Below, one piece after another: positions 1 through 61,192 of a stretch of 64,000 nucleotides of DNA. The translations under genes and the position numbers were made by a program. The notes under the pieces were generated by a model. It made no database searches. It was not told where the DNA came from and was given only the letters and a program-made list of their open reading frames with translations. The DNA is from Bacillus cereus (lineage in GTDB: Bacteria; Bacillota; Bacilli; Bacillales; Bacillaceae_G). The stretch is from contig NZ_NUOT01000046.1 in the NCBI RefSeq assembly GCF_002584535.1, positions 62,001 to 126,000 on the forward strand. The letters are read 5' to 3'. Position 1 is the stretch's first letter; every line of letters begins with the position of its first letter.

Positions 1-1022
1 ATTTCGCCGACGATTTCCTCCAATATATCTTCAAGCGTTACAATTCCGGCCGTGCCTCCGTATTCATCATATAAAACAGCCATTGGAATTCGCTTTTTCT
101 GCATTTGCAGAAGTAAATCGTGAATTGGAGTTGTTTCCATAACTTCAATAATCGGACGCATATACGTACGAATAGATGATAAATCTTTTGTATCGCCTTT
201 CATATATCGAATAAAGAAGTCTTTTACGTTAACCATACCAATAATATCATCTTTATCTTCTCCAAAGATTGGATAACGCGTGTATCGTTCACTTTGGATG
301 ATGTTCATGTGCTCTTCTACTGAATCTTCGAGATAGAAACCGACAATTTCCGTCCGTGGTACCATAATCTCTTTCGCAATGCGGTTATCAAATTCAAAGA
401 TATTATTTACATACTTATATTCTGCTTGATTAATTTCTCCACTTTCATAGCTCTCTGAAAGAATTAATCGTAATTCCTCTTCAGAATGGGCTACTTCATG
501 TTCAGAAGCCGGTTTCAAGCCGAACAAACCAGTTATAACACGTGCTGAACTATTTAGCATCCAAATAAAAGGATACATTACTTTATAGAACATCATGAGC
601 GGTCCAGCAAATAATAAAGTTACTCTTTCCGCCTTTTGAATTGCCATTGTTTTTGGTGCTAATTCACCTACCACAACATGTAAATATGTCATAATCATAA
701 AAGCAAGACCAAAAGTTAATACATGAGATATAGAAGGAGTTATATTCCATTTCTCAAATAGCGGACGCAAAAGCTTCTCTATTGTCGGTTCACCTAACCA
801 ACCCAGTCCCATTGCCGTAACTGTAATTCCTAACTGGCAAGCAGATAAATATTCATCTAAATTTGTTGTTACCTTTTTTGCTGCTAACGCACCGCGTTTT
901 CCTTCCGCAACAAGCTGATCTATACGACTTGAACGTACCTTAACAATCGCAAATTCTGCTGCTACGAAAAATCCAGTAAATGCGATTAAAATCGCAACCA
1001 TGACTAAATTAAATATTCCCAA
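1..1022 (-). CDS. HlyC/CorC-family membrane protein (CNNM + CBS pair), 3' end outside window
   Basis: The translation begins [19 protein letters not shown] with a hydrophobic CNNM-type N-terminus. [14 protein letters not shown]-like stretch follows, then a tandem CBS region ([41 protein letters not shown]). This is the standard order for CorC/HlyC proteins, which are membrane proteins linked to Mg2+/Co2+ or Na+ transport. I chose the TTG at 1022: an AAGGGG ribosome site lies 5 nt upstream, an in-frame TAA sits just before it, and the next ATG would cut into the first membrane segment. About 340 residues are visible, and the corC C-terminal domain runs off the left edge. The family call is secure; the transported ion is not known. 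Confidence 0.9.
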
Positions 1023-1146
1023 TGAATCCCCTTAGTAAAAAAACTAAGGTGTTCACCTCCTGTATACTTATAATGTTTTCTGATTCTCTATTTCTTTAGA
1101 AAACATAGCGCTATACAGAAATTAAAAGAGTCGGATCCAATTTCAA

Positions 1147-1554
1147 CTATAAAAATAGTATCAATGTTTGTATTAAAGTCGTCGTTTGACCAGATAAAGA
1201 CTTCGATATTTTTTCACGTTGTGAATCTGTTAACCCATCTAATAGAGGTTTCAACTGTGTTAGTTCTGCTTCTAATTGATGGATATGGTTTGTCACTTCA
1301 TTCACTTGTTTCGAAACGTGTTCATTGATACCGAGCAGCTTCTTTCTCTCCTCGATCCTCTCTTTAATCTCACAAAGCGGCATATGCATTTCCTTGCATT
1401 TCTCAATAAATTGTAATGTCTCAAATGCTGTTTCATCGTAATAGCGATAATTAGATTGAGATCGCTCCGCTTTTAAGATACCTAGATTCGTATAATAATC
1501 AATCGTTCGTTTCGATACGTGAGCCAAGTGAGCCAACTGTCCGATTCGATACAC
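1147..1554 (-). CDS. MerR-family transcriptional regulator, small, no large effector domain
   Basis: The 135 aa protein opens with a MerR helix-turn-helix (VYRIGQLAHLAHVSKRTIDY, then YYTNLGIL and NYRYYDE). A coiled-coil dimerisation helix follows (HVSKQVNEVTNHIHQLEAEL) and a short tail with no recognisable ligand domain. I start at the GTG at 1554. An upstream in-frame ATG at 1602 overlaps the -10 box of the likely promoter (1594-1622), so it cannot lie in the transcript. The start codon still has some doubt because the best purine-rich stretch (GGGGAGGG) is rather far upstream. A perfect ACTGTACAGT palindrome inside the promoter spacer suggests autoregulation. The signal sensed is unknown. 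Confidence 0.85.
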   Translation of the reverse strand: MYRIGQLAHLAHVSKRTIDYYTNLGILKAERSQSNYRYYDETAFETLQFIEKCKEMHMPLCEIKERIEERKKLLGINEHVSKQVNEVTNHIHQLEAELTQLKPLLDGLTDSQREKISKSLSGQTTTLIQTLILFL

Positions 1555-1593
1555 CTTCCCAACGATTTTTCCCTCCCCATTTATGTTAAGAAC

Positions 1594-1622
1594 ATCATAC
1601 AATACATAAACTGTACAGTCAA
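1594..1622 (-). promoter_or_regulatory. SigmaA promoter of the merR gene with palindromic operator
   Basis: On the minus strand a TTGACT -35 box (1617-1622), a 17-nt spacer and a TATGAT -10 box (1594-1599). The spacer contains the perfect palindrome ACTGTACAGT (1610-1619 region), the position where MerR proteins usually bind. Its place rules out the longer ATG start of the downstream gene. Confidence 0.7.
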
Positions 1623-1738
1623 ACGTGACAGTTTTCTAGCTCTGAATATGAATGACCAATTCGCACTTGATCTCCCTTCTCTAAACTAATTGACTTTGGA
1701 TAATTACTAATGTGAGACTGAATCACAACATATTTCAT
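1619..1738 (-). pseudogene. Truncated SH3-like domain protein remnant (39 aa)
   Basis: It reads MKYVVIQSHISNYPKSISLE, then KGDQVRIGHSYSELENCHV and a TGA. From memory this matches the N-terminal half of a roughly 65 aa Bacillus SH3-like protein (MKYVV.ESHVSNYPNPI..EKG..V.IG), whose C-terminal WVPEQ part is missing. The ORF runs into the -35 box of the merR promoter, so it was probably cut off by a rearrangement here. A weak ribosome site (GGGATAGG) precedes the ATG. The family memory cannot be checked here. Confidence 0.5.
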
Positions 1739-1832
1739 TTTACCTATCCCATATTCTGAAAATTAAGTTATAATTTTATTATAAAACTTATTTACGATAA
1801 ACAAATTCAAAATATTGAGAGGAGAAATTCTT

Positions 1833-1883
1833 ATGTACTACAGCAACCTTTTCGAAAATGATCAACCTGTAATCCGTCTATAA
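1833..1883 (+). CDS. Leader peptide of the EamA exporter (16 aa)
   Basis: A 17-codon ORF encodes MYYSNLFENDQPVIRL and has a strong ribosome site, GAGAGGAG at 1817-1824, 8 nt before the ATG. It ends 89 nt before the exporter ATG. Its last codons (CCGTCTAT, 1874-1881) are the perfect complement of ATAGACGG (1953-1960), which leads into the exporter's ribosome site. This is the layout of translational attenuation leaders such as those of cat and erm genes. No homologous leader is known to me. Confidence 0.6.
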   Translation: MYYSNLFENDQPVIRL

Positions 1884-1963
1884 TCTAAGGCGGGCATGCT
1901 TATATTTTTATAAAAAATATGCCTCGTCTTAGGACTTGTAAGAATCCTACAAATAGACGGAGG
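1874..1963 (+). promoter_or_regulatory. Translational attenuator: ribosome-site-sequestering stem
   Basis: CCGTCTAT (1874-1881, end of the leader ORF) pairs over 8 bp with ATAGACGG (1953-1960); the latter runs directly into GGAGG, the exporter's ribosome site (1959-1963). Between them is a second long stem, CTAAG at 1885-1889 against CTTAG at 1928-1932, topped by an A/T-rich helix and the pair GCAT/ATGC. Seen in sequence: the complementarity. Inferred: ribosome stalling in the leader frees the ribosome site. Confidence 0.55.
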
Positions 1964-1972
1964 TATTTCACA

Positions 1973-2860
1973 ATGAAACAAACAATTTTAGGTGCCATAT
2001 GTTTATCACTTGCAGCAAGTATTTGGGGTGGTATGTACGTTATCAGTAAATATGTACTAGACTTTGTTCCCCCTCTTACACTTGTTTGGCTTCGCTTTAT
2101 CATCGCTTTTTTCGTTCTATATATTATTTTGAAAATAATTGAACGAAAAAATAAAAAGAAACTCCTCATTCATAAACGAGACTGGTTACTTTTTGCTTGG
2201 ATCGGTTTCATTGGCTATTTTATTTCAATTACATGCCAATTTTTTGGAACAAAATTATCAGATGCTCACACAGGTTCTTTAGTTACATCAGCCACTCCAG
2301 CATTTATGGTTGTATTTGCTGCTTTGATTTTGAAAGAAAAACTAACTGCACGTAGAATACTCTCTACCATCTTAGCTACAATAGGCGTCACAATTGTCAT
2401 CGGATGGGATATAGAGATGGGTTCTTATTTTATTGGCACAATCATTTTAGTTGGAGCTGCCATTACATGGGCTTTACTATCTATTTATGTAAAAATTGCT
2501 TCTAGCCGTTTTTCATCCTTGGTCATTACAACGTATGCAATATTCTTTTCGTTATTTTTCATTACACCGTGCATGATTTGGGAGTTACAATCAAGTCCAA
2601 TTGAAAACTTAAATCCCACAATCATTTTAGGTATTCTATATTTAGGAATCATCTCCACTGCAGGTGCCTTTTTTCTTTGGAATAAAGGACTTGAGTTAAT
2701 GGATGCCAGCATCGGTTCATTATTTTTCTTTTTTCAGCCCATCGTTGGTTCATTACTAGGGTGGCTATTATTGAATGAAACATTAAACAGCAACTTCTTT
2801 ATTGGTGGTGCCCTGATTATATTTAGTGTAGTGATTACTACACTTGAAAAGAAGGGCTAA
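1973..2860 (+). CDS. EamA/DMT-family transporter (drug/metabolite exporter)
   Basis: The 295 aa protein begins MKQTILGAICLSLAASIWGG and has about ten hydrophobic segments in two EamA repeats, the second starting near IGTIILVGAAITWALLSIYV. Both the length and the SIWGGMYV opening are typical of the drug/metabolite transporter superfamily. The ATG at 1973 is chosen because GGAGG lies 9 nt upstream; an in-frame ATG at 1919 falls within the leader stem-loop and has no ribosome site. A leader peptide and pairing RNA precede it, so expression is probably induced by something that stalls ribosomes. A terminator follows. The substrate is unknown. Confidence 0.88.
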   Translation: MKQTILGAICLSLAASIWGGMYVISKYVLDFVPPLTLVWLRFIIAFFVLYIILKIIERKNKKKLLIHKRDWLLFAWIGFIGYFISITCQFFGTKLSDAHTGSLVTSATPAFMVVFAALILKEKLTARRILSTILATIGVTIVIGWDIEMGSYFIGTIILVGAAITWALLSIYVKIASSRFSSLVITTYAIFFSLFFITPCMIWELQSSPIENLNPTIILGILYLGIISTAGAFFLWNKGLELMDASIGSLFFFFQPIVGSLLGWLLLNETLNSNFFIGGALIIFSVVITTLEKKG

Positions 2861-2868
2861 CAATAGCA

Positions 2869-2906
2869 AAAAACACAGGCTGTATAATACTCCAGCCTGT
2901 GTTTTT
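2869..2906 (+). terminator. Rho-independent terminator of the EamA gene
   Basis: AAAACACAGGCT (2870-2881) pairs with AGCCTGTGTTTT (2894-2905) around a 12-nt loop and is followed by a T run. It starts 9 nt after the EamA stop. Confidence 0.85.
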
Positions 2907-3005
2907 AATTTCTGTTATACACTGTTAAATATTGATGTTGACAATAATCAGAAGTATATTGGGCCTGTTTTTATATCCACTTCTTTAAATCCTTATTTAC
3001 AAATG

Positions 3006-3446
3006 TCAAACATACCAAGCATCCTCAGTGAATCTATTCCATTCTAATGTAAAGTTGTTTGCTTTAAGTTTGATACTGCAAAATTGTTTTGTTTTCCAAT
3101 CAGTGCCGAACATTTTAAAAATAAAATTATTTCTAATTGAACTTTGGCTAAAAGTCAAAAACTCCATTTCTTCCAATTCAACTATTGGGACTTCCTTATC
3201 AATTCCATCATCAAAATGGATAATGAGTTTAATCATTGTTACACCTTTAAAAGTAAGTTTGCATCTATCCGTTGCCTTTGCAACTTTATAAGGATTGAGA
3301 GGATGAATTTTGGAAATATAAACAAATTCAAATTCAAAAATAGCCATATCTTTTTCAACCTTTATTTCTTCAACACAGCAATCGTGAAAATCTAAGTAGT
3401 CAAAATAATGATTTGTGGTTTTATATTCCCAAGAATTCAAATTCAC
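3006..3446 (-). CDS. Conserved-looking hypothetical protein, 146 aa
   Basis: This starts at a GTG with GGGGGG about 9 nt upstream. It has no signal peptide or membrane segment. The sequence alternates charged and aromatic residues (YFDYLDFHDCCVEEIKVEKD, later IHFDDGID) and appears beta-rich. It resembles small cytosolic proteins found near Bacillus toxin-immunity genes, but I see no domain I can name. It stands alone between an exporter and a pentapeptide protein. No function is proposed. Confidence 0.6.
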   Translation of the reverse strand: MNLNSWEYKTTNHYFDYLDFHDCCVEEIKVEKDMAIFEFEFVYISKIHPLNPYKVAKATDRCKLTFKGVTMIKLIIHFDDGIDKEVPIVELEEMEFLTFSQSSIRNNFIFKMFGTDWKTKQFCSIKLKANNFTLEWNRFTEDAWYV

Positions 3447-3544
3447 TCTATTTAACCCCCCTCAATTAGAAATTACGATAAATGAATAATCTAGGTTTAT
3501 CCTAAGTGGTAATTGTTATGAAACATTTACATATTATCTTTTCC

Positions 3545-4414
3545 TCAAGCAGACCAGTGCGCCGGACGAGAAAGCAATCTTGGTAATTTCGTGTTGACAT
3601 CCCCTTTCGCTGCGTTAACCTGAACTTGAGTCAGAAAAACACTCTCAGTAAGATCTGCCCCACGAAGATCAGCGTCTCGTAAATCGGCACCAATAAAGTC
3701 AGCCATTCTTAAATCTGCTCCTCGAAGATCAGCTGCAATTAAGTATGCTCCTCGTAAATTTGCTCCCTTAAGATCTGCCTTTCTAAGCTTTGCCCCCATA
3801 AGGTTTGCTCCTCGATGATTAATCCTTTTATTTTTTTTCGAACTCTTATACTTGTAACGTGACTCCGTCCATACTAATTCGCTTGTCTTTAATAGAAGTT
3901 CATTTACATACGCTCGGTGTGATGGAATGTTTAAATCCATCAGCAATTCTGGACTAAGCTGAGAAAGTCGTTCCGTCTCTGCAATTGCGTCAAAAATTCC
4001 CTTATGAATCGTACGTGTCGCTTTTAACGCTAAAGCCTCATTCAAATACCACAGCATCTCATGAAGTTGGTGCATAATTGGGAAAACGTCATACATTTTC
4101 TTGGCATGTTTTGAATCTCCCCTCCAGTCAACTCCCTCAAAAGTAACCTGTGAAACTTTTTGTCCCGCACCAAAACACTCAAATACAGTACATCCTTTAA
4201 AACCTTTCTGCCTTAGATTTTTATGAATGCTACAACGAAAATCTGATTGCAGATTAGAGCAAGGCTTACCAGCATCCTTATTAACGGCAAAATCTGCCGA
4301 AGCTGCAAAAGGTAATGCAACGCAGCACAAACTGAAGCAATTCTCACAGTCAGCTCGTAAACTATTAAAACTCACATCAGTTTTTGCATCCAAAAAATTA
4401 TTATTCTCTAACAA
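3545..4414 (-). CDS. Pentapeptide-repeat protein with Cys-rich N-terminal domain
   Basis: Of 289 aa, the C-terminal third (about residues 200-262) is a run of A(D/N)LxG pentapeptides: [20 protein letters not shown], then [17 protein letters not shown]. Such runs fold into a right-handed beta-helix; a few family members protect DNA gyrase from quinolones, but most have unknown roles. The N-terminal part has Cys-rich motifs ([24 protein letters not shown]) that could bind metal. The start is a TTG with GGGGG 8 nt upstream. No partner gene is adjacent. Confidence 0.85.
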
Positions 4415-4601
4415 AACATGTACCCCCTGTTGTTCTACCTTTTATTTCATTTTAAATACATAATCAATTCGTAAATCAAATATCATATTTCATTTCAAAC
4501 GCTACGCTAACTTCCAAATATAATTTCATATAAAAAGGACATATTCTCCAACCTATATTATCATTAAATTATAAAGATTCATACAATCAGGAGGGAATCA
4601 T

Positions 4602-4778
4602 ATGACATTAGAAATGAAAACAAACTGCCAAACTTGCAATACTTCACTTCAAACGGATTCGGAAGCTTATATTTGCACTTACGAATGTACATTTTGTGCA
4701 CCGTGCACGGAAAAAACAAATCATGTTTGTCCAAACTGTGGTGGTGAATTAGTGCGTAGACCCAAAAGAAAATCATAA
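4602..4778 (+). CDS. DUF1272 zinc-ribbon-like small protein, 58 aa
   Basis: A short gene with a strong ribosome site (GGAGG just upstream of the ATG). Its eight cysteines form repeated C-x2-C pairs (CQTC, CTYEC, CAPC, CPNC) ahead of a basic tail, RRPKRKS. That pattern and size are typical of DUF1272, a presumed zinc-binding family of unknown role. It ends directly at a bidirectional terminator shared with the convergent esterase gene. Confidence 0.85.
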   Translation: MTLEMKTNCQTCNTSLQTDSEAYICTYECTFCAPCTEKTNHVCPNCGGELVRRPKRKS

Positions 4779-4806
4779 AAGCAAAGCTATTCATAGCTTT
4801 GCTTTT
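4779..4806. terminator. Bidirectional terminator between DUF1272 gene and SGNH esterase
   Basis: AAGCAAAGCTAT (4779-4790) is the reverse complement of ATAGCTTTGCTT (4793-4804), with T runs on both strands. It serves two convergent genes. Confidence 0.8.
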
Positions 4807-4817
4807 CATTTGAACAC

Positions 4818-5387
4818 TTATTTAAAAATCTCTTTCAATTCACTTCCAATTAACTCAGATAAATATTCATAACCAACAGCATTAAAATGTAAGCCGTCAC
4901 GCTCTTCATTTCCTACGAATTTCTTATAATCTAATTCTTCAATCATGTGAGAATGTAGATTAAGAAAATGAACTCCTGTTTGTTCTGCCACTTCTCTTAC
5001 TACTTCCGCATACTGTAATAATACTTCATTTGTTCTTGCGTACTGCCTTTCCTCATCCACTGGTGCTGGACTTATGAGAAGCACTTTTTCTGGTGAAATT
5101 CTTTTCACAATCGTAATTAAATTTTCTTCATATTCTTGTAGTGATACTTGTTTATGAAATGCTGCATCATTCGCACCAAAAAAGACTGTTACAAATGTTG
5201 GCTCGTAACATAAGACATCCTCTTCTATTCGTTTTAATGCGTCAAACGTATTGTCACCAGAAACCCCTGCATTTACCACTTTCCATTCAGGAAACAGACT
5301 TTGTAAACGCGGTGTTAATCTAGGTTCGCCATTCCAGAATGTTTCACCGTCTGTAATACTATCACCAAAACATACTAATGTTTTCAT
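4818..5387 (-). CDS. SGNH/GDSL-family esterase or lipase
   Basis: The 189 aa protein contains the family blocks in order: FGDSITDG (catalytic Ser in GDSIT) near residue 9, a Gly in AGVSGDNT, FFGANDA (Asn block) and DGLHFNAVGY near the end, which supplies the Asp and His. No signal peptide is seen, so it is likely cytosolic. The family hydrolyses ester or acetyl groups on lipids or sugars. The start ATG is close to the metallo-hydrolase stop (5402), so the two are probably co-transcribed, with the metallo-hydrolase first. Confidence 0.88.
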   Translation of the reverse strand: MKTLVCFGDSITDGETFWNGEPRLTPRLQSLFPEWKVVNAGVSGDNTFDALKRIEEDVLCYEPTFVTVFFGANDAAFHKQVSLQEYEENLITIVKRISPEKVLLISPAPVDEERQYARTNEVLLQYAEVVREVAEQTGVHFLNLHSHMIEELDYKKFVGNEERDGLHFNAVGYEYLSELIGSELKEIFK

Positions 5388-5401
5388 TTCCGTTTCCCTT
5401 C

Positions 5402-6226
5402 TTATGTATGAAATAATTTTCCTTCTAATGCTGAAATATAGCGCTGAGCCGAACGTTCTACAGCTTCATTTGCATTCTCTTTTACTACCCTGTGAAAAGC
5501 GTTGTATAAACGATTAAAAGGAAGTGACTTTACCCTTTTGGCCATTTCTTCAACTTTATTTACTGGTAACGGAATTAAATTGGGATAGCTATACATAAAG
5601 CTCACCCACTCTTGATCCGCTACAACTTGAATAATGTCCCCTGTTAATAAAATCCCTTTCCCTTCATTCCCCTGTGACCAGTGTAAAACAGAACCACCTT
5701 TAAAATGTCCGCCTAGACGATGCACAGTGAGTTCATGAGATAATTGCAATGATTCTCCTGACCAAAAAACAATATGTTTACTTGGACGCATGACCCACTG
5801 TTTATCATCTTCATGAATATAGATTGGTACATCGAATCTTTCCGCCCATTCTACTTGAGTAGAATAATAGTGCGGATGGGATAACGCAATTGCATCTAAT
5901 CCCCCTAATTCTTTCACCTTCTCAATCGTATTTTCATCGAAGTATGTAATACAGTCCCATAACAAATTATACGATTCTGTTTTTACCAAATAAGTTGTTT
6001 GACCAATCGCAAATTCTGGTTTCGTTGTCATGCTATATAATCCTGTTTCTTCTTCAATGATTTCATTTTGATATGTATGGCTCGCTTGTAAATCATCAAG
6101 TGTTGTCCAAGATTGCCCTTTCGGATTCACATACTGCCTCTCCTCATTACAAATCATACAATTCACTGGTTCTTCTGTACTCGCTGCATATTGCACGCCG
6201 CACGTTGTACACACAAAATTCTTCAT
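5402..6226 (-). CDS. MBL-fold metallo-hydrolase with N-terminal zinc ribbon
   Basis: This 274 aa protein starts with a small zinc-finger-like domain (CTTCGVQY...CMICNEE) and continues into a metallo-beta-lactamase fold (SHPHYYS near residue 135, GGHFKGG, LLTGDI, and a terminal AFHRVV). The usual HxHxDH metal motif is here HPHYYS, so the Asp-His pair is missing and the metal site is altered. ATG 6226 is chosen for AGGAG 7 nt upstream rather than an earlier in-frame start. It sits in a tight run with the SGNH esterase and an APH-like kinase. Confidence 0.85.
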   Translation of the reverse strand: MKNFVCTTCGVQYAASTEEPVNCMICNEERQYVNPKGQSWTTLDDLQASHTYQNEIIEEETGLYSMTTKPEFAIGQTTYLVKTESYNLLWDCITYFDENTIEKVKELGGLDAIALSHPHYYSTQVEWAERFDVPIYIHEDDKQWVMRPSKHIVFWSGESLQLSHELTVHRLGGHFKGGSVLHWSQGNEGKGILLTGDIIQVVADQEWVSFMYSYPNLIPLPVNKVEEMAKRVKSLPFNRLYNAFHRVVKENANEAVERSAQRYISALEGKLFHT

Positions 6227-6275
6227 AAAAATTCTCCTGTCCCTATTTATTTTTTTATCTATCAATCTTTCATTG

Positions 6276-7139
6276 TTAATGAATTTGATCCATCCAATAA
6301 CGCCAAGCTTGTAAATAAGCTTCTAAATCTTCAGGATGATGTCTCATACAAGTGTCTAATCTGCAATATAAAGCGATTACAACTTCTTCATATAAAACTT
6401 TTCTCGTTCTATTATGAAATACACTCTTTTCTACTACCTCGCCGATTGTTTCCTTCGTTAGATCTTCCGGCGTCGAACAAAATGCATAAATGAAATCATA
6501 TATTGGATCTCCCAAAACTGGCAGAGGGTCAATCACACCATATAGTCTATGCTCATTAAATATAAAATTATGAAATCCACAATCCCCATGTAATAAATAT
6601 GGTTGATTACTATATCTCGTTCTATTTGGACTGTGTACTAATTTAAGAACAGTATGAAAATCTTCTTCTGTTATATAGGATTTTACAGTTTCATTAGCTT
6701 CCATCACCCTCTCTAAAAGAAAGACCTGCCAAGAGTCTACCGGTTCTTCTTTCCATTCCCACTGATCCATTTTCATAGCTGGTTTATATGTATGAATCAC
6801 TTTCTGTACAAGTGTAAAAAGAATATCTTTTTTATTCTCAACATCATAACTTGTGGAACCAGGGATAAATGAATAGACCATATATCTATTGAGTGAATCT
6901 ACATACAAAAGCTTAGGAAATACACTTTTGTCTTCATAAAATTTAAGGAAATAAGCCTCTTCTCCAATTACTTTCGGTTCATTCAACTTAACAACGCACG
7001 GCTCATTTCCTTCTATAAGGTACAGTCTACTTGTAGTACCGCCGGTTAATCTCTTGCACCCTTTTGGATAATGATCAATGACTTCATTAACAATTAATTG
7101 TTCAATAATTTCTGAAATATCCACTTTTCCTATTCCCAC
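6276..7139 (-). CDS. Aminoglycoside phosphotransferase/choline-kinase-like protein
   Basis: The 287 aa protein has the APH-fold signature: LLHGDCGFHNFIF (the Brenner-type catalytic Asp) around residue 185 and GVIDPLPVLGDPIYD (the metal-binding Asp) about 25 residues later. The N-terminal half (LTGGTTSRLYLIEG, CVVKLNEP) supplies the nucleotide-binding strands. Most such stand-alone Bacillus proteins phosphorylate small unknown substrates, so a drug-resistance role is not implied. The start could be the GTG at 7139 or the GTG five codons further in, which has AGGA near it. Confidence 0.8.
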   Translation of the reverse strand: MGIGKVDISEIIEQLIVNEVIDHYPKGCKRLTGGTTSRLYLIEGNEPCVVKLNEPKVIGEEAYFLKFYEDKSVFPKLLYVDSLNRYMVYSFIPGSTSYDVENKKDILFTLVQKVIHTYKPAMKMDQWEWKEEPVDSWQVFLLERVMEANETVKSYITEEDFHTVLKLVHSPNRTRYSNQPYLLHGDCGFHNFIFNEHRLYGVIDPLPVLGDPIYDFIYAFCSTPEDLTKETIGEVVEKSVFHNRTRKVLYEEVVIALYCRLDTCMRHHPEDLEAYLQAWRYWMDQIH

Positions 7140-36045: not shown

Positions 36046-36162
36046 CATTGCCATCAACCTAAGAAAACAGGTTACCCCCAAAACGATAAATAAGCTCTTT
36101 TTCACAAGAAAGCCCAAAAATTTCGTTCTGGGGTGTAATAAAACTTTAGCTTGATGGGCATG
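36046..36162. mobile_element. IS231-like MITE, 117 bp
   Basis: CATTGCCATCAACCTAAG at the left matches inverted CTTTAGCTTGATGGGCATG at the right. Inside, TTACCCCCAAAACGA and TTTCGTTCTGGGG form a further pair. It carries no gene. The flanks are GGGAACAGCCA and GGGTAGCACCA, both of the GGG-N5-CC form of an IS231 target but not identical. Confidence 0.7.
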
Positions 36163-36577: not shown

Positions 36578-36614
36578 GGGGTCTCGCGAGCATTTTGAAA
36601 AAAACCACGTTAAG
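36578..36614 (+). repeat. Solo Tn3/Tn4430-type terminal inverted repeat
   Basis: GGGGTCTCGCGAGCATTTT begins a 37-nt string ending GAAAAAAACCACGTTAAG. It matches the 38-nt ends at 51022 and 52284 with a few changes and one missing base. It is preceded by TATAA, as is the 51022 end. No partner end in the opposite orientation is visible nearby, so it is an orphan. Confidence 0.7.
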
Positions 36615-36702: not shown

Positions 36703-37086
36703 TTATCTCCTGAAATCGTATGTATCTTCGGGAACATTTAATGTATGTCCGTTAATGATTACTGTATCATTGTCTTGCCAAACAATTTTTGCCGTATCCT
36801 CTCGGTAATTCCAATACACATTCTTTGTCTTAAAATATTTGCGGTGATTAAATACTAACTCTCCTCTAACAGCAAAACTCGTTGTTGCTCCACCGTCTGT
36901 TACATAAGCTTTAAATGTATATGTTCCGTCAGGAGATTGTTTTTCAGCAATCTTTTCACCTGTCGGTAGTCGATCCATACTGAAAAACGCCCAATACACT
37001 CCGTATACGAACAAACCAACTATACAAAATAATATAATTAATGATTTTCGTTTGGTTTTCTTAATTTCCTTCTTTGCAAAATTCAT
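36703..37086 (-). CDS. DUF5412-type single-pass membrane protein
   Basis: The 127 aa protein has a basic N-terminus, one membrane helix (SLIILFCIVGLFVYGVYWAF) and an extracytoplasmic part, MDRLPTGEKIAEKQSPDGTY, then FAVRGELVFN and NVYWNYREDTAKIVWQDNDT. This matches DUF5412, known in Bacilli with no role. It sits inside the stretch bounded by the orphan Tn3-type end and a MITE. Confidence 0.8.
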   Translation of the reverse strand: MNFAKKEIKKTKRKSLIILFCIVGLFVYGVYWAFFSMDRLPTGEKIAEKQSPDGTYTFKAYVTDGGATTSFAVRGELVFNHRKYFKTKNVYWNYREDTAKIVWQDNDTVIINGHTLNVPEDTYDFRR

Positions 37087-37413: not shown

Positions 37414-37524
37414 CATCACTATCAAGCTAACAAAATAAAATACGCTTTCTTTCTGTAGATTTATAGGAAAGGATGGCCTTTTTTTACACTTGGGGGTAAA
37501 GCAAATTCTTAAGTTGATGGGCAG
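37414..37524. mobile_element. IS231-like MITE, about 111 bp, in a Tn3-type end
   Basis: CATCACTATCAAGCTAAC is the left end and TTCTTAAGTTGATGGGCAG the inverted right end. The inside string CTTTCTTTCTGTAG is shared with the IS4 leader at 57.4 kb. The left flank GGGATACCGCCA (37402-37413) matches the outer bases of a Tn3-type end, a known preferred IS231 target. Confidence 0.65.
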
Positions 37525-37601
37525 GGGGGGGGGTAGCAATGGAACTTTTTTACACAACAAATACTTTATCAAGACCTAAATCGTAAAAAGTCATAAAAAA
37601 T

Positions 37602-41761: not shown

Positions 41762-42430
41762 TACCGAGATATCTACAATACAGTTCGTACATCGTTGTAT
41801 GGGTTTAAACATCCAAGCCAATATGAGGATGTATTGATCAAGCCCGTCCGGAAGATCAACATCAACCTGATTATGGAAGAGTGGGAAAATATTCAGCGGA
41901 TCATATTGTCACTTGACCTGAAAACAACAACACAAAGCATCATAGTTGGAAAGCTTAGTGCTTATGCACGTAAAAATAAAACCAAACGTGCTTTGTGGGA
42001 GTACGACAATATCATCAAAAGTCTATATTTTCTTGAATATATCGATTCCGTATCAGTTCGTCGAAATGTACAACGCGCATTAAATCGAGGGGAAAGCTAT
42101 CATAAATTGCGTAGAGCAGTATCCTATGCTAACTTTGGTAAACCCCGTTTCAAAACTGAACAAGATCAACAGCTATGGGGAGAGTGCAGCCGACTGCTTA
42201 CGAATTGTATTATTTACTACAATGCTAGCATTTTGTCTAAAATGCTGACTTATGGGGAAAGAATGGAACGAGATTCAGATATGTTGAAACGGATTTCCCC
42301 GATTGCATGGCAACATATCAATCTTTATGGTCGCTACGAGTTTAATAAAAAACAAGAATCGATTGACATGAGCGAAATTATACAGGAATTGATCCAATCA
42401 AAGGTTATACCAAGTGTGGATTTGAAATAA
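41762..42430 (+). pseudogene. Tn3-family transposase, C-terminal third
   Basis: It reads YRDIYNTVRTSLYGFKHPSQ, then KININLIMEEWENIQRIILS, RRNVQRALNRGESYHKLRRA and VSYANFGKPRF. LTNCIIYYNASILSKMLTYG follows and HINLYGRYEFNKKQESIDMS ends it. This is the end of a Tn3-type DDE transposase (normally nearly 1000 aa). The N-terminal two-thirds are replaced by the IS231 end at 41746. No transposon end follows the stop, so the 3' boundary is also lost. Confidence 0.8.
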
Positions 42431-47957: not shown

Positions 47958-48295
47958 GGATAAGATGGATCCCTACTCTCACAAAGAATCCCCGGCCTAT
48001 CAACATTCTGTGAAACATCCTCTTCACCTACGTATGTAGTTTCTTATTCATCCCATTATATTAGTGGTTAAAAGCAAACATTGTCTTTATTTTTTTCCTC
48101 CATATGCATAAAATTCCTCATAAACTAACGGCTAGCTTATGGGATAATCATTAACTCAAGGCCAATTTATGTTTCCAATTCCGTTAGATAATTAGATAAT
48201 CACCTATAAAAGTAAGTGTTTTCCGGCCAACTAATGCTTCCAAATGCAATCGACTTATGGGTAAAGTGACATTAAGTCCTTTTTATTTGCAAATT

Positions 48296-48338
48296 TATGT
48301 GATATATTTTTAACATAAGGAGCGAAATATATCACATA
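48296..48338. promoter_or_regulatory. Operator dyad upstream of the DUF3796-XRE pair
   Basis: TATGTGATATATTT (48296-48309) and AAATATATCACATA (48325-48338) are perfect 14-nt arms 15 nt apart. They lie directly upstream of the DUF3796 start (48349), a likely binding site of the XRE regulator two genes on. Confidence 0.6.
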
Positions 48339-48348
48339 GGGGGATTGT

Positions 48349-48708
48349 ATGAAAAATAAAATAGCTTATTTAGGATTTATCGGTTTTTTAGGTTTTTTGG
48401 GTCCTTTCACATTTTTAGGTGATATTACGTGGGCAGGTCTCTTATTCAGTTTCTTTTTCTTCTTCGCATATGCAAAAGTAGTACCAGATGAGCTTTTTAT
48501 ACTACATGTTCGCATCTCTGCTACAAGAGCTTTTTTCGTAGCATTGGTACTAGGTATCATACTAGTTTTGAGTATTTTTATTTTTGAAAATCTACATATA
48601 ATTCGTTTCCTTGTTATTATTTCAGTTTTTGCACCATTAGGTACCTTCTTAGTTAATTTAGAAATATTTGAGCGTAGAGAAAAGAAAGGAATGCAAGATG
48701 CCACTTAA
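48349..48708 (+). CDS. DUF3796 membrane protein, 119 aa
   Basis: Four hydrophobic segments: [20 protein letters not shown] at the N-terminus, then [38 protein letters not shown] and [18 protein letters not shown], with a basic tail. The composition and length match DUF3796. It overlaps the XRE gene by 11 nt (48698-48708), so the two are translationally coupled. Confidence 0.82.
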
Positions 48709-48898
48709 GACTCGAATGAAAGAATATAGAGTAAAGTTAAATATGTCTCAGGAAGATTTAGCTAATAAGGTTGGGGTTAGAAGAGAAACAATTGGCAATC
48801 TCGAAAACGGAAAATATAACCCTTCATTCAAACTTACTTATGATATTGCAAAGGTTTTGGAAGCGCCTATTGAGGCTCTGTTTTGGTTTGAAGAATAG
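48698..48898 (+). CDS. XRE-family helix-turn-helix regulator, 66 aa
   Basis: [20 protein letters not shown] opens a Cro/C1-type [23 protein letters not shown], then [20 protein letters not shown] and LFWFEE. The start at ATG 48698 is chosen because AAAGGA lies 7 nt upstream and it overlaps the upstream gene end. This is the known DUF3796-plus-XRE pairing, and the dyad at 48296 is its probable target. Confidence 0.88.
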
Positions 48899-48987
48899 AT
48901 TAATTCTAGTACAAGTAAGTAAACTTTTGTAATTGATATGTTCATGAGTTTTGATCAATCTTTTTTATAAAATCTACATCCAGACTT

Positions 48988-49150
48988 TTAACATGGGAAT
49001 CCATTTTGATTAATCTTGATATGCTCCCCATTAGGTAGACAGATAAAAAATAAAATTTGTTTTCCTCGAGGTGTATTTGTATCAAACTGACCCTTAATGC
49101 TAATGCCTTTATTCTCAAGTTTGTTGAAGGCTTGGTTCAGGATATTTACG
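48988..49150 (-). pseudogene. Unrecognised C-terminal gene fragment
   Basis: One frame reads DVNILNQAFNKLENKGISIK, then GQFDTNTPRGKQILFFICLP and NGEHIKINQNGFPC-stop (48988). No start codon or ribosome site is seen. It is the tail of a lost gene of unknown family. The rest of 49150-49400 is AT-rich and uninformative apart from the next entry. Confidence 0.35.
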
Positions 49151-50983: not shown

Positions 50984-51021
50984 CATGCCCATCAACTTAA
51001 GATTTTTCACTGCCCCTATAA
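50984..51021. mobile_element. IS231-like left end interrupted by the Tn3-type end
   Basis: CATGCCCATCAACTTAAGA is followed by TTTTTCACTGCCCC and TATAA before the Tn3-type repeat begins at 51022. The same order, CTAAGGTTTTATACTGCCCC, occurs in the MITE at 52321. So this is the front part of a MITE, cut by the cassette. Confidence 0.55.
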
Positions 51022-51059
51022 GGGGTACCGCCAGCATTTTGGAAAAAACCCACGTTAAG
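51022..51059 (+). repeat. Left Tn3-type terminal inverted repeat
   Basis: GGGGTACCGCCAGCATTTTG continues GAAAAAACCCACGTTAAG, in all 38 nt. Its 5' neighbour is TATAA. It is a near copy of 36578-36614. Confidence 0.8.
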
Positions 51060-51075
51060 AGCAAATTGGGATATT

Positions 51076-51116
51076 AAAAGGACTGATTAATCCATGTTTA
51101 GGTTAATCAGTCTTTT
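51076..51116 (-). terminator. Terminator of the MccF-like gene
   Basis: AAAAGGACTGATTAA (51076-51090) pairs with TTAATCAGTCTTTT (51103-51116) around a 12-nt loop. Confidence 0.75.
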
Positions 51117-51130
51117 AGTATTTAATGGAG

Positions 51131-52129
51131 TTAATTTATCCAATCTTCAAGAATTGTTAATGTTTTATTTGCTGCATCCATCTCTATTTGTATACCAATT
51201 GGGACAGTTAACATCGGGTGAGTATGGCAACAATCAAATTCTGCAATAAAGGGCAGGCTAATACCATTTAAAACCTCTAATAGAATTTCATATGGTTTTT
51301 TATTTGTACCATTATCGTTAAACTGTTCATGTTTTCCGAGGATTAAACCAGAAATTTTATCAAATATTCCATTGACCTTAAGTAATGAAAAACTTCTTTC
51401 AATAGTAGCAGCATCTTTTGTTGTATCCTCGATAAGAAGGATATCCCCTTTTTTTATCTCTGGCATATACTCGCTACCCCAAATACCAGTTAAAGTGTCT
51501 AAATTCCCTCCAATTAACCTTCCTGTTGCTTTTCCGGTATTTACACAAACCCAATCATTTTTTATAGGTTGTTTTTCCTTAATTTTTTCTTCCCAGTTGA
51601 TAAATTCATCTGTCCAATAAGGTGGCTTTTTAATATAGTATGGTAGTTTTTGTTTTTCTTCCAGCATGTCGCTGAAATATTCGTATGTAAAATTAACAAA
51701 TGGCTCAAATTCACCAAATGAAGGGATTAATGCAGGTCCATAAAATGTATTTATCCCAGTTTTTGCGTATATTCCTAGTAATATCGCAGTAACATCTGAA
51801 TAACCTATCATTATTTTAGGATTTTTTATAAATGCCTCATAATCAATATAAGGCAATATTGAATTTGAATTCATTCCACCAATGGTTGACATTATACATT
51901 TGATGCTAGGGTTTCTTATTAATTCATTAAGTTCTTCTGCTCTCTCTTTAATGCTTCCAGCTCGGTAGTTATCATGTTTACCAGTTAAATTTCCTTCTAT
52001 TATATTAAATCCCTTGCTCATCAGAAATTTTTTTGCTCGATCAAATCTTTTAGGTGCTGTATAAGTTGCTGGTGATGAAGGGGAATAGATTCCAATTAGA
52101 TCACCTTTTTGTAATTTGCTGAGTTTCAT
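51131..52129 (-). CDS. S66-family serine peptidase, MccF-like (LD-carboxypeptidase fold)
   Basis: This 332 aa protein has the S66 order: IGIYSPSSPAT at the start, MSTIGGMNSNSILPYIDYEA near residue 80, nucleophile motif MIGYSDVTAILLGI (Ser near 112), DILLIEDTTKDAATIERSF (Glu), and DCCHTHPMLTVPIG (His). The GGMNSN stretch points to the MccF subgroup, which cleaves the amide linking a peptide or amino acid to a toxic nucleotide (microcin C), rather than to LdcA. It is the only gene in the cassette and so is probably the selected passenger. Confidence 0.85.
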   Translation of the reverse strand: MKLSKLQKGDLIGIYSPSSPATYTAPKRFDRAKKFLMSKGFNIIEGNLTGKHDNYRAGSIKERAEELNELIRNPSIKCIMSTIGGMNSNSILPYIDYEAFIKNPKIMIGYSDVTAILLGIYAKTGINTFYGPALIPSFGEFEPFVNFTYEYFSDMLEEKQKLPYYIKKPPYWTDEFINWEEKIKEKQPIKNDWVCVNTGKATGRLIGGNLDTLTGIWGSEYMPEIKKGDILLIEDTTKDAATIERSFSLLKVNGIFDKISGLILGKHEQFNDNGTNKKPYEILLEVLNGISLPFIAEFDCCHTHPMLTVPIGIQIEMDAANKTLTILEDWIN

Positions 52130-52283
52130 TGCTTTATCTCTCCCTTAAATGGTATCTGCATTGAAACGAAGAACTAATGCAAATAGTCTTACAATTAATT
52201 GTACCTTATATTAATTATTACCGCGCATGTATGTAGAATTAATACAACACAATTTAAAACAAGGTTCAAATAACTCAAAAGCT

Positions 52284-52321
52284 CTTAACGTGGTTTTTTT
52301 CCAAAATGCTGGCGATACCCC
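52284..52321 (-). repeat. Right Tn3-type terminal inverted repeat
   Basis: CTTAACGTGGTTTTTTTCC followed by AAAATGCTGGCGATACCCC is the inverse of 51022-51059. Its last base is shared with the start of the MITE at 52321. Confidence 0.8.
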
Positions 52322-52440
52322 ATCGCTTTCAAGCTAAGGTTTTATACTGCCCCAAAAACAATAATTTTGTATACTTTTACTCTAGGGATGTCAATTTCAC
52401 TATATTTAGGGTATTTATTTTTACTAACTTGATGGACATG
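52321..52440. mobile_element. IS231-like MITE, about 120 bp, abutting the Tn3-type end
   Basis: CATCGCTTTCAAGCTAAG is the left end and inverted TTACTAACTTGATGGACATG the right end. The inside is AT-rich with no ORF. It joins directly to the outer end of the cassette's right inverted repeat. Confidence 0.6.
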
Positions 52441-52496
52441 TGGAGTCGTCTCCCTTATAAACCCTTAAGTATTTATAATCAAATATATGTTTTTGA

Positions 52497-57706: not shown

Positions 57707-58618
57707 TTACTTGAGAGCATTAATTGTAATCGTGGCAGCCTGCGCGATCAGTTCATTATCATAGGTAGCATCCTTTGTATCACGACTGGACAGAATTGCA
57801 ATGATAATGGGTTCTCTATTCGGTGGCCAAACGATTGCAATATCATTTCGTGTTCCGTAGCTTCCGGCTCCTGATTTATCAGCGACTTCCCAGTCTTTTG
57901 GTACGCCAGCGCGGATGAGTTTGTCTCCTGTAGCGTTTCCGTGCATCCAATCCGTAAGAATTTTACGTTTGTCAGCTGGGAGTGCATTTCCAACTGTGAA
58001 AGCCTTAAGATCGGTAGCAAGTGCTTTAGCTGTACTTGTATCACGGATGTCACCAGGAATAGCTTCATTTAAATCTGTCTCAAAGCGATCTGCCTGGGTA
58101 ACTCTATCACCAATCTGTTTGAGCGCTGTTTCAAATCCTTCAGGCCCGCCTAGTTCCTTAAATAAAAGGTTCCCTGCGGTATTATCACTGTAACGAACGG
58201 CAGCTTCTGCAATCTCTCCAAGTGTCATACCAGTATCTACATATTTCTCTGTAATGGGTGAATATTCAACTAAATCATCTTTTGTATAAGTGATAACTTC
58301 GTTTAATTTGTCAATTGGATTTTGCATTAGCAATGCTCCTGCAGCTAATGCCTTATATGTTGATGCGAAAGCAAACCGTTCATTTTGTTTATAAGAAACT
58401 GTTCGATTTGTACCAGTATCAATTGCATAGATACCTAGTCGAGCATCGAACTTTTTCTCAAGTTGAGCGTACTTTTGATGAGTCGCATGATTTATATGCT
58501 TTGTTTTTTCTTTTGCTTCCACTTGCAATGGTTCACCTGTAAAGAGTTTTACACTTGCAAGACTTAAACTTAGTATACCAACACACATCCCTATTTTTAG
58601 CACCCTTTTACTTTTCAA
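57707..58618 (-). CDS. bla: Class A beta-lactamase, BcI-like penicillinase
   Basis: The 303 aa protein has a signal peptide (SKRVLKIGMCVGILSLSLAS) and the class A motifs in order: S-x-x-K as FASTYKALAAG, S-D-N as YSDNTAGNLL, E-x-x-L-N in RFETDLNEAIPGDIRDTST (catalytic Glu in ETDLNEA), and K-S-G as VADKSGAGSYGTRND. It is close to B. cereus BcI but diverged, with several changes. The true start is the TTG at 58618, aligned with the BcI start, with AAAGGA 9 nt upstream. It is divergent from blaR1-blaI across the operators at 58803-58871. Confidence 0.95.
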   Translation of the reverse strand: MKSKRVLKIGMCVGILSLSLASVKLFTGEPLQVEAKEKTKHINHATHQKYAQLEKKFDARLGIYAIDTGTNRTVSYKQNERFAFASTYKALAAGALLMQNPIDKLNEVITYTKDDLVEYSPITEKYVDTGMTLGEIAEAAVRYSDNTAGNLLFKELGGPEGFETALKQIGDRVTQADRFETDLNEAIPGDIRDTSTAKALATDLKAFTVGNALPADKRKILTDWMHGNATGDKLIRAGVPKDWEVADKSGAGSYGTRNDIAIVWPPNREPIIIAILSSRDTKDATYDNELIAQAATITINALK

Positions 58619-58802
58619 AATGATCATTCCTTTCAGACTTTTAATACTTAAAACAAATGTTAAATTAGATACAATGTACACAATTCGAATAACAGTTTTT
58701 ACCATTACATGTAAATCCCCCCATTTATTGATTAGACTCTTATGTACGAATTGAAAAAACAACCGTATTTAAGGCGTTTCAAAAGATTACAGATGTATCA
58801 AT

Positions 58803-58871
58803 ACTACAAATGTAGTTCTTTACTACATTTGTAGTACCGCCACATCTGTAGTATAGTATTACATATGTAAT
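58803..58871. promoter_or_regulatory. BlaI operators between bla and blaR1
   Basis: Three TACA/TGTA-type dyads: ACTACAAATGTAGT (58803-58816), TACTACATTTGTAGTA (58821-58836) and the perfect palindrome ATTACATATGTAAT (58858-58871). ATCTGTAGTATAGT (58844-58857) is a further half site. These match the boxes bound by BlaI/MecI repressors and cover both divergent promoters. Confidence 0.85.
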
Positions 58872-58965
58872 TGGATTGAGTCAACTTTTTATTTTCCCCC
58901 ATCAAGCTACTATAAATATGCTATATACCTGTTTTAAAAAATTTTAAAATCCAAGAGAGTTGGTG

Positions 58966-60747
58966 TTGAAGGACATGTTTTTAACGCATTTTATAATTGG
59001 TTTATTGGTGTCTTCATTTTCCATTACTGTTATTCTACTTATAAGAAAATGGTTCGGCAGACAACTGACAGAAAAATGGCATTATCATTTATGGATGTTT
59101 CTTTTTATCGCTTTAGCACTTCCATTCATACCTACTCATTTATATAATTTTAGTTTTCTCTTTAGCGATGGGGATACATATCAGACTAATGTGCTCAGTA
59201 CTGATATGGGGATAAATGGAACTAATATGATACAGGGATTAAATCTAATACAAGACTTTTCTGTATCTGTCAATCGGCCAGATCTATCCTTACTTAATGT
59301 GGGAGTAATGGGAGTATGGATGTCAGGGGTGCTATTATTTACTTTTACCACGGTTCGTGGATGGATAAAACTTAGAAGGATAAAGAATTATTCTTCTACG
59401 TTTTCTAATCAAGAAGTTCTCGTGCTTTTCGAAGAATGCAAGAAAAGACTACAGATTAAAAAATCAATAAAAATTGTTATTTCCAAAAGAGTCCAATCTC
59501 CAATGATATTCGGACTTTTTCAAACATATATCGTCTTACCTTCTCAGCATGAAAACTGGCTCAGCTTAAAACATTACGAGTACATCTTTCTTCATGAACT
59601 GAATCACTATAAAAACAAGGATCTGCTGACAAATTACGTGATATTGTTCTATCAAATCATTTATTGGTTTAATCCCCTTGTCTGGCTTGCTTTTAGAGAA
59701 ATGAGATTAGATCGGGAAATCGTATGTGATACATCTGTTTTACATTTGCTAGATGATAATTCATTTAGTGAGTATGGACATACAATCATTAATTTTGTGG
59801 ATCTTTCAAAACGATCAAGTAAGCTACCATTAGTAACACAAATAAACGGTTCGAAGAGTCAAATCAAAAAACGAATTGAACAAATTGCTACCTATAAGCC
59901 TGGCGCAAAGAAATCAATAAGAAAAAGCGTCTTTATTTATGTATTGGCTAGTATCATTTTGACAGTCCAATTACCTGTCATTTCCGTATTTGCGACGGAG
60001 AACGACCGATACTATTTTAATAATGACGGAACAGTTTATGAGGATTTACATCAATTCTTTAAAGGGTATGAAGGAAGTTTTGTTTTATATGATCAGAGTG
60101 CAAAACAATATCGCATTTATAATGAAGAGAAAAGTACGTTGCGGGTATCACCTGATTCCACATACAAAATCTATAGTGCCTTATTTGCACTAGAATCAAA
60201 TGTGATATCATCAGAAGAATCCACTATTCCATGGAATGGGATAGTGCAATCCTATGACGCTTGGAATATGGATCAAGATGTCTCATCTGCTTTAAAAAAA
60301 TCTGTAAACTGGTATTTCCAAGAACTAGATCGTAGAACAGGGTTTGAAACAATCCAAGCCAATCTACAAGATATACACTATGGAAACTCAAATGTATCTG
60401 GGGGATTAGGTGAATTTTGGCACGAATCCTCATTAAAAATTTCCCCAGTTGAGCAAGTGCAACTGTTGCAGGCTTTTTATAACAATCAATTAGGATATAA
60501 GGAAACTCATATCCAAGCTTTAAAGGAAGCACTGCTCTTAGAAAAGAATGAAGAAGCTCGCCTATCAGGAAAAACAGGTACAGGAACAGTGAATGGAAAA
60601 AACATCAATGGTTGGTTTATCGGATATGTTGAGACGAAGAACAATACTTATTTCTTCGCTACCAATATACAAAATGAAGATGATGCATCTGGAAGCAAGG
60701 CTGTAGAAATTACTTTATCAATTTTAAAAGATTTAGGAATCTATTAA
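58966..60747 (+). CDS. blaR1: BlaR1/MecR1-type beta-lactam sensor protease
   Basis: The protein has about 593 residues, with four N-terminal membrane helices and the cytosolic M56 zinc site HELNHYKNKD (HExxH) near residue 212. A further helix (IYVLASIILTVQLPVISVFA) leads to an outer penicillin-binding sensor domain with S-x-x-K in SPDSTYKIYSALF, Y-G-N in IHYGNSNVSGG and K-T-G in LSGKTGTGTV. All signature residues are intact. Acylation of the sensor activates the protease and relieves BlaI repression. TTG 58966 follows GAGAG by 6 nt; TTG 58960 and GTG 58963 are alternatives. Confidence 0.95.
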   Translation: MKDMFLTHFIIGLLVSSFSITVILLIRKWFGRQLTEKWHYHLWMFLFIALALPFIPTHLYNFSFLFSDGDTYQTNVLSTDMGINGTNMIQGLNLIQDFSVSVNRPDLSLLNVGVMGVWMSGVLLFTFTTVRGWIKLRRIKNYSSTFSNQEVLVLFEECKKRLQIKKSIKIVISKRVQSPMIFGLFQTYIVLPSQHENWLSLKHYEYIFLHELNHYKNKDLLTNYVILFYQIIYWFNPLVWLAFREMRLDREIVCDTSVLHLLDDNSFSEYGHTIINFVDLSKRSSKLPLVTQINGSKSQIKKRIEQIATYKPGAKKSIRKSVFIYVLASIILTVQLPVISVFATENDRYYFNNDGTVYEDLHQFFKGYEGSFVLYDQSAKQYRIYNEEKSTLRVSPDSTYKIYSALFALESNVISSEESTIPWNGIVQSYDAWNMDQDVSSALKKSVNWYFQELDRRTGFETIQANLQDIHYGNSNVSGGLGEFWHESSLKISPVEQVQLLQAFYNNQLGYKETHIQALKEALLLEKNEEARLSGKTGTGTVNGKNINGWFIGYVETKNNTYFFATNIQNEDDASGSKAVEITLSILKDLGIY

Positions 60748-60767
60748 AGAAAATGGAGGAGATAAAT

Positions 60768-61151
60768 ATGGAGAAAAATATTCCTAGTATATCAGAATCA
60801 GAGTGGGAAATCATGAACGTGCTTTGGGATGAAGCTCCTCAAACAGCAAATGACATTATACTCTCCTTACAGGAGCGTACTGATTGGAAGCCGACAACTA
60901 TACGTACTCTTCTCGATCGGTTGGTTCAAAAAGATGTAGTAGGTGTCAATAAAGATCTAAGAGTTTACACCTTTTACCCGCTTTATATACAGGAAGAGTG
61001 CCAGCGTGCCGAAGCCGAATCATTTATTAAGCGTATCTATGGAGGTACTTTAAAATCCATGCTTGCCCAATTCATTCAGGAAGATACCCTATCTGATGAT
61101 GATATTAACGAACTACGCCTTATTTTAGATAAGAAACCTAAAAAGCAATAA
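60768..61151 (+). CDS. blaI: BlaI/MecI-type repressor
   Basis: The 127 aa winged-helix protein reads MEKNIPSISESEWEIMNVLW, then QTANDIILSLQERTDWKPTT, IRTLLDRLVQKDVVGVNKDL and YIQEECQRAEAESFIKRIYG, a match to BlaI with its Asn/Phe-region cleavage site. ATG 60768 has GGAGGAG about 6 nt upstream; a longer frame from 60753 overlaps that site. It starts 20 nt after blaR1 and shares its transcript. Confidence 0.93.
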   Translation: MEKNIPSISESEWEIMNVLWDEAPQTANDIILSLQERTDWKPTTIRTLLDRLVQKDVVGVNKDLRVYTFYPLYIQEECQRAEAESFIKRIYGGTLKSMLAQFIQEDTLSDDDINELRLILDKKPKKQ

Positions 61152-61154
61152 TAT

Positions 61155-61192
61155 AAAAAAAGCGATTTGGAATTTTTCCAAATCGCTTTTTT
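61155..61192 (+). terminator. Terminator of the blaR1-blaI operon
   Basis: AAAAAAGCGATTTGG pairs with CCAAATCGCTTTTTT around a short loop, 4 nt after the blaI stop. Confidence 0.85.

What the first reader, a model, noticed from the sequence alone, without database searches (positions are those of the whole stretch)
51022..52321. Transposase-less Tn3-type cassette carrying an MccF-like peptidase
Seen: 38-bp inverted ends of Tn4430 type bounding one gene with its terminator; the MccF subgroup motif GGMNSN. Known: Tn3-derived miniature elements can carry passengers and be moved by a Tn3 transposase in trans; MccF-type peptidases give resistance to microcin C-like compounds. Inferred: a mobile resistance cassette for peptide-nucleotide antibiotics.
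Basis: partly seen in the sequence, partly recalled or inferred. Interest (0 to 1): 0.7.

Follow-up and report, generated by a model that had tools for sequence, protein, structure and literature searches.

The report
Transposase-less Tn3-type cassette carrying mccF
A single gene for an enzyme that probably destroys microcin-like antibiotics sits between the two ends of a known kind of jumping DNA that has lost its own jumping enzyme, so it looks like a small gene cassette that could only move with outside help; the kind of element is known and this is a new example.

Summary
38-bp inverted ends (36 of 38 identical) at 51022-51059 and 52284-52321 bound 1,300 bp with one gene, an S66 peptidase of the MccF group (51131-52129, minus), and a strong terminator. 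Two larger units elsewhere that carry Tn3 transposase genes have near-identical ends (35 of 38). A 15-nt match to the putative resolvase-site repeat of one of them lies inside the right end and hints at Tn4430-type ancestry. The missing 5-bp duplication has a plausible cause: a 120-bp IS231-type miniature element (52321-52440) sits on the last base of the right end. TATAA lies directly left of the cassette and again just beyond that insertion. Two database loci show this layout with clear duplications. Other transposase-less units with Tn3-type ends carry exact duplications but different contents. Such Tn3-type mobile insertion cassettes are already in print, for example in Listeria. The mccF cassette itself was found nowhere else in what I searched; no empty site or closely related genome was available. 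Resistance is inferred from homology: 57% identity to the S66 peptidase of the microcin C7 plasmid, with the putative catalytic residues conserved. Verdict: real, a new member of a known kind, moderate interest.

The parts
51022..51059 (+). Left 38-bp Tn3-type terminal inverted repeat
   Evidence: 35 of 38 identical to all four ends of the units in L082 and L124
52284..52321 (-). Right 38-bp Tn3-type terminal inverted repeat
   Evidence: 36 of 38 identical to the left end
51131..52129 (-). mccF-like gene, S66 serine peptidase, 332 aa; putative triad S111, E234, H302
51077..51116 (.). Terminator-like hairpin downstream of the gene, inside the cassette
52130..52283 (-). Upstream arm with an AGGGAGA ribosome-binding-like stretch; no sigma-70-type promoter match
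52240..52254 (+). 15-nt match to the repeat of the putative TnpI resolvase site in the Tn4430-like unit of L082; single copy, probably a relic
   Evidence: longest shared word 15; 0 of 1000 shuffles and 0 of 412 other window stretches reach 15. With 3 mismatches allowed the word is not enriched in the window (10 matches, 7.6 expected)
52321..52440 (+). 120-bp IS231-type miniature element inserted at the terminal C of the right end
   Evidence: same position as the full IS231-like element in L121 and the literature cases
51017..51021 (.). TATAA, putative target duplication, left copy
52456..52460 (.). TATAA, putative target duplication, right copy, beyond the IS231-type element and a degraded 14-nt repeat
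   Evidence: a random anchor gives TATAA in the same 9-position range in 1958 of 63970 cases (3%)
50984..51016 (+). Left-end remnant of another IS231-type element next to the cassette
41795..42430 (+). C-terminal fragment of a Tn3-family transposase, outside the cassette
   Evidence: matches positions 207-389 of the 389-position DDE_Tnp_Tn3 model
36578..36614 (+). Lone Tn3-type end, no partner found

Best explanation
A non-autonomous Tn3-family element related to Tn4430: two transposase-binding ends around one passenger gene, mccF, with its own terminator. Shown: the ends, the single gene, a terminator-like hairpin, the match to ends of units with transposase genes, and an IS231-type element at the right end. 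Inferred: it entered this site by transposition at a TATAA target when a compatible TnpA was supplied in trans; it descends from a Tn4430-like transposon that lost tnpI and tnpA (a single TnpI-site-like repeat remains); and the peptidase cuts the amide bond between the peptide or aminoacyl part and the nucleotide part of microcin C-like compounds, protecting the cell. No microcin synthesis genes were recognised among the window ORFs read, but not all were scanned.
For: Ends and their rarity. Near-identical ends (35 of 38) on the 5.7-kb unit in L082 with a tyrosine recombinase and an 806-aa Tn3 transposase ORF and on the 6.4-kb unit in L124 with a resolvase and a 987-aa Tn3 transposase. Resolvase-site word. 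Masked-duplication layout clear in L121 (IS231-like element with exact 11-bp repeats TGGCGGTACCC, then TATAA on both sides of a 67-bp unit) and in L113 (repeats 10 of 11, then TTTAT on both sides). IS231 insertions just before the last base of such ends (PMC1626470) and IS231 repeats of 10-12 bp (PMC2266710). Other transposase-less units: L097 and L126-L128 with TAATA on both sides; one identical 328-bp unit at two places, L109 (AATCA both sides) and L110 (TGTATA both sides). MccF: best PDB matches are MccF chains, E 3e-167; 57% identical to the S66 peptidase beside ThiF, MFS and acetyltransferase genes on plasmid MccC7-H22.
Against: No second copy of this cassette and no empty site found. The right TATAA is 3 nt further out than in L113 and L121, the repeat there is degraded, and AT-rich letters often precede IS231-type targets, so the duplication is suggestive only. 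Both units with transposase genes, and a 760-bp pair of ends in L083, lack flanking duplications. Seven end-like matches in plasmid NZ_CP127373.1 form no clear pair, and many other ends found were single in the stretch fetched. No intact transposase seen in the window. No promoter match. No enzyme activity tested.
Confidence: 0.72

Rival explanations
1. Fossil: the unit is an internal-deletion relic of a Tn4430-like transposon that already carried mccF and never moved as a cassette after losing its transposase.
For: Single TnpI-site-like repeat left inside; Tn3 transposase fragment 8.6 kb away; IS231-type element interrupts the right end; no second copy found.
Against: Ends are well kept (36 of 38) while the repeat beside the IS231-type element is degraded; comparable transposase-less units elsewhere carry exact duplications.
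Confidence: 0.3
2. Housekeeping: the protein is an LD-carboxypeptidase for wall recycling or has an unknown substrate, and its cassette location is incidental.
For: The S66 family includes murein carboxypeptidases; NCBIfam's only match is muramoyltetrapeptide carboxypeptidase, far below its cut-off (118 bits, cut-off 378).
Against: Scores 559 and 427 bits against the two sets of MccF chains and at most 168.5 against other S66 chains; 57% identical to the MccC7-plasmid protein.
Confidence: 0.25
3. Composite: two separate miniature elements landed on either side of a resident mccF.
For: Such composites are described (TIME-COMP, PMC4133298).
Against: Only the two outer ends were found; no inner partner ends within 11 edits of the consensus.
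Confidence: 0.05

Closest known systems
Tn3-type mobile insertion cassette with a qac-type gene in Listeria plasmids pLIS12 and pLIS26 (PMC8508797, passages read)
   Same: Passenger without transposase, 37-bp Tn3-type ends, Firmicutes host
   Different: Has 5-bp duplications and near-identical copies in other species; passenger is an efflux gene with a regulator
Tn4430 of the Tn3 family (PMC7157771, passages read)
   Same: Tn3-type ends; a TnpI-site-like word close to one end
   Different: No tnpA and no tnpI here; carries a passenger gene. The Tn4430 end letters are recalled, not from a call
MIC231 cassettes of the Bacillus cereus group (via passages of PMC3913671)
   Same: One passenger gene between transposon ends, moved by a transposase in trans
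   Different: Those are moved by the IS231 transposase; here the bounding ends are Tn3-type and the IS231-type element is a later insertion
TIMEs and TIME-COMP (PMC4133298, passages and Discussion part 1 of 2 read)
   Same: Non-autonomous Tn3-family elements moved in trans
   Different: TIMEs are 262 bp; TIME-COMP has two TIMEs flanking other DNA
MccF of the microcin C7 plasmid and MccF structure 3gjz (a Bacillus protein, recalled)
   Same: S66 family, putative catalytic residues, glycine-rich NSN motif
   Different: 57% identical to the former; here without recognised biosynthesis genes nearby

Membership tests
Tn3-type mobile insertion cassette | Tn3-type terminal inverted repeats of about 38 bp | tested here: met
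Tn3-type mobile insertion cassette | Passenger gene and no transposase between the ends | tested here: met
Tn3-type mobile insertion cassette | 5-bp target duplication | tested here: inconclusive
   Not adjacent; TATAA beyond an IS231-type insertion; clear in L113 and L121
Tn3-type mobile insertion cassette | Same unit at more than one place | tested here: inconclusive
   None found in the collections searched, which seem to hold few Bacillus cereus-group records
Tn3-type mobile insertion cassette | Movement when a compatible transposase is present | not testable with these tools
   needs an experiment; host genome not held
Tn4430 subgroup | tnpA and tnpI genes | tested here: not met
   a non-autonomous derivative at most
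Tn4430 subgroup | Matching ends and TnpI site | tested here: inconclusive
   Ends match the Tn4430-like unit in L082 at 35 of 38; one repeat of its putative site only
MIC231 | IS231-type ends bounding the cassette | tested here: not met
   Bounding ends are Tn3-type; the IS231-type elements lie outside
MccF peptidase | S66 domains, conserved Ser, Glu, His and similarity to known MccF | tested here: met
   (triad assignment recalled)
MccF peptidase | Cleaves microcin C-like compounds | not testable with these tools

The most novel reading that the evidence does not exclude
Small Tn3-type cassettes of Bacilli form a trans-mobilised pool of stand-alone self-protection genes: mccF here and an extra lspA with a C39 peptidase in Cytobacillus plasmids would be antidotes to competitors' compounds, spread without any transposase of their own.
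Probability: 0.15. Interest if true: 0.55.

Novelty: new member of a known kind. Interest (0 to 1): 0.36.

Why it matters
If right, a detoxifying peptidase against peptide-nucleotide antibiotics can travel alone, apart from any microcin cluster, on an element that ordinary annotation misses because it has no transposase. It also suggests that IS231-type insertions at the last base of Tn3-type ends can hide target duplications, so such cassettes may be under-counted.

Tried and rejected
Searching the host genome: none held. Looking for a closely related genome through family- and order-wide searches gave only distant or partial matches: cassette DNA in 7 of 61 and 6 of 43 genomes, all end-only or weak; end pattern in 2 of 397; right flank 1 of 43, a 37-bp match; two other window regions 23 of 397 and 2 of 397. 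Bacillus cereus-group records seem scarce in the collections: 14 plasmid records matched the left end, none labelled B. thuringiensis or B. cereus. That is inference, and it limits every negative here. The genome-contig search stopped at 80 pattern matches, 59 of them relatives.

MccF relatives bounded by ends: 0 of 59 loci carry the Tn3-type end at up to 9 mismatches without gaps. In a general test 1 of 59 (L028) has long flanking inverted repeats of unrelated sequence, not followed up; for 49 of the 59 that script used a fixed match end of 5990 instead of the true end.

Reading the lone end at 36578 as half of a second cassette: no partner found. MccF in viral contigs: none. The Cytobacillus-type end in viral contigs: none. 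The left end in phages: none. Five further plasmid stretches with Cytobacillus-type ends were fetched but not scanned for pairs; two of them hold mercury genes with a recombinase gene, one also a Tn3 transposase gene.

The resolvase-site word was the best of 28 comparisons (2 arms, 7 targets, 2 strands); the control does not correct for that.

Full report
What is there. The 1,300-bp unit 51022-52321 is bounded by 38-bp inverted ends identical at 36 of 38 positions. They are the only two matches to the end pattern within 3 mismatches in 64 kb; 100 shuffles gave none. Between them lies one long ORF on the minus strand, 51131-52129, 332 aa, with both S66 domains, and a terminator-like hairpin. 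No sigma-70-type match was found upstream of the gene, but an AGGGAGA stretch precedes the start codon.

Which element. The same kind of end bounds two larger units that carry transposition genes. In L124 (CP079755.1) positions 725-7084 hold a resolvase, a collagen-like gene and a 987-aa Tn3 transposase. Each window end is identical to each of their four ends at 35 of 38 positions. Neither unit is flanked by a direct duplication (for L082). Inside the right end, 52240-52254 shares an exact 15-nt word with the repeated motif upstream of the recombinase gene in L082. 0 of 1000 shuffles of the arm and 0 of 412 other window stretches reach 15. Against this, the word was the best of 28 comparisons, and with 3 mismatches allowed it is not enriched in the window (10 matches, 7.6 expected). 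PMC7157771 (passages read) describes TnpI-type sites upstream of tnpI in Tn4430, and an extra TnpI binding site near each end of Tn5401. I read the word as a single leftover repeat.

The missing duplication. The bases next to the ends are TATAA (left) and ATCGC (right). The right flank, 52321-52440, aligns end to end with six other IS231-type miniature elements from the window and a Bacillus arachidis plasmid. Its first base is the last base of the right end. PMC1626470 (passages read) reports this position, just before the last base of Tn4430-like ends, for four IS231 insertions. PMC2266710 (passages read) gives IS231 duplications of 10-12 bp and says the subgroup occurs almost exclusively in the Bacillus cereus group. 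In L121 a full IS231-like element with a DDE transposase domain sits in this position in a 67-bp Tn3-type unit. It has exact 11-bp repeats, and TATAA lies left of the unit and again one base after the right repeat. In L113 a miniature copy does the same to a 1,051-bp unit with a methyltransferase-like gene (Pfam match below its cut-off), with TTTAT on both sides. In the window the sequence after the miniature element is TGGAGTCGTCTCCC, T, TATAA. The repeat is degraded and 3 nt longer, and a random anchor shows TATAA in that range 3% of the time. So the duplication is plausible, not proven.

Other bounded units. One search found transposase-less units with exact duplications. Four Cytobacillus plasmids (L097, L126-L128) hold a 2,430-bp unit with a C39 peptidase and a signal peptidase II (lspA) gene, TAATA on both sides; the other three copies each differ from L097 at one position and share the same 100-bp flanks, so they look like one insertion event. 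An identical 328-bp unit (328 of 328) lies at two different places, L109 (AATCA on both sides) and L110 (TGTATA on both sides). These show that such ends can move DNA without a transposase inside; they do not show it for mccF. Against: a 760-bp pair in L083 has no duplication, and many ends were found single.

The passenger. The best solved-structure matches are MccF chains (3gjz, E 3e-167, 559 bits; a second MccF set 427 bits; other S66 chains at most 168.5). It is 57% identical to the S66 peptidase of plasmid MccC7-H22, next to ThiF, MFS and acetyltransferase genes, and 76% to the closest of 59 genome loci. S111, E234 and H302, the positions expected for the S66 triad (assignment recalled), are invariant in 14 aligned proteins: the window's, the MccC7-plasmid one and 12 of the 59 loci. 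PMC9239234 (passages read) describes MccF cleaving the amide bond of intact and processed microcin C and protecting E. coli. Stand-alone mccF near mobile genes is not unheard of: PMC9942559 (passages read) reports it with phage- and transposon-related genes in Streptococcus pyogenes.

Limits and novelty. The cassette had no match in 72,556 plasmid records in near mode. The genome searches with its DNA or protein found only ends or distant relatives (7 of 61 genomes; 6 of 43; 1 of 13). The held collections seem poor in Bacillus cereus-group records, so this is weak negative evidence. A transposase-less Tn3-type cassette with a resistance-type passenger and 5-bp duplications is already described in Listeria (PMC8508797, passages read). 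MIC231 cassettes, one with a fosfomycin gene, are described for Bacillus cereus (PMC3913671, passages read). Searches for mccF with transposon and mobile terms and for Tn4430 or Tn3 cassettes in Bacillus listed no report of an mccF cassette of this type; I saw listings and the passages named here, and only open-licence papers are searched. I therefore file it as a new member of a known kind.

Noticed in passing
window 36046-36162, 37414-37525, 52321-52440: A family of 112-131 bp IS231-type miniature elements, also in Bacillus arachidis plasmid NZ_CP127373.1, often next to GGGGTA-like sequence that resembles Tn3 ends.
   Followed up: partly
window 36578-36614: Lone Tn3-type end near a DUF5412 gene (36703-37086), no partner end found.
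   Followed up: partly
window 41795-42430: C-terminal Tn3 transposase fragment, preceded by an IS231-type end.
   Followed up: partly
L097 5001-7430 (and L126-L128): 2,430-bp transposase-less Tn3-type unit with a C39 peptidase and an lspA gene, TAATA on both sides; one insertion site in four plasmids.
   Followed up: partly
L113 4247-5297: 1,051-bp Tn3-type unit with one methyltransferase-like gene and an IS231-type element at its right end.
   Followed up: partly
CP079755.1 (L096, L124): Plasmid labelled Klebsiella grimontii whose transposon ends match those of Bacillaceae plasmids; possible mislabelling.
   Followed up: no
window 57707-61151: Class A beta-lactamase, BlaR1-like sensor and BlaI-like repressor; the stretch 58728-61168 has a match at about 90% identity to a Peribacillus plasmid.
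   Followed up: no
window 48272-49017: Small module (DUF3796 and HTH genes) 95.8% identical to the Bacillus arachidis plasmid.
   Followed up: no
L028 3818-6062: 55-nt inverted repeats of unrelated sequence around an mccF relative in a metagenome-assembled genome.
   Followed up: no
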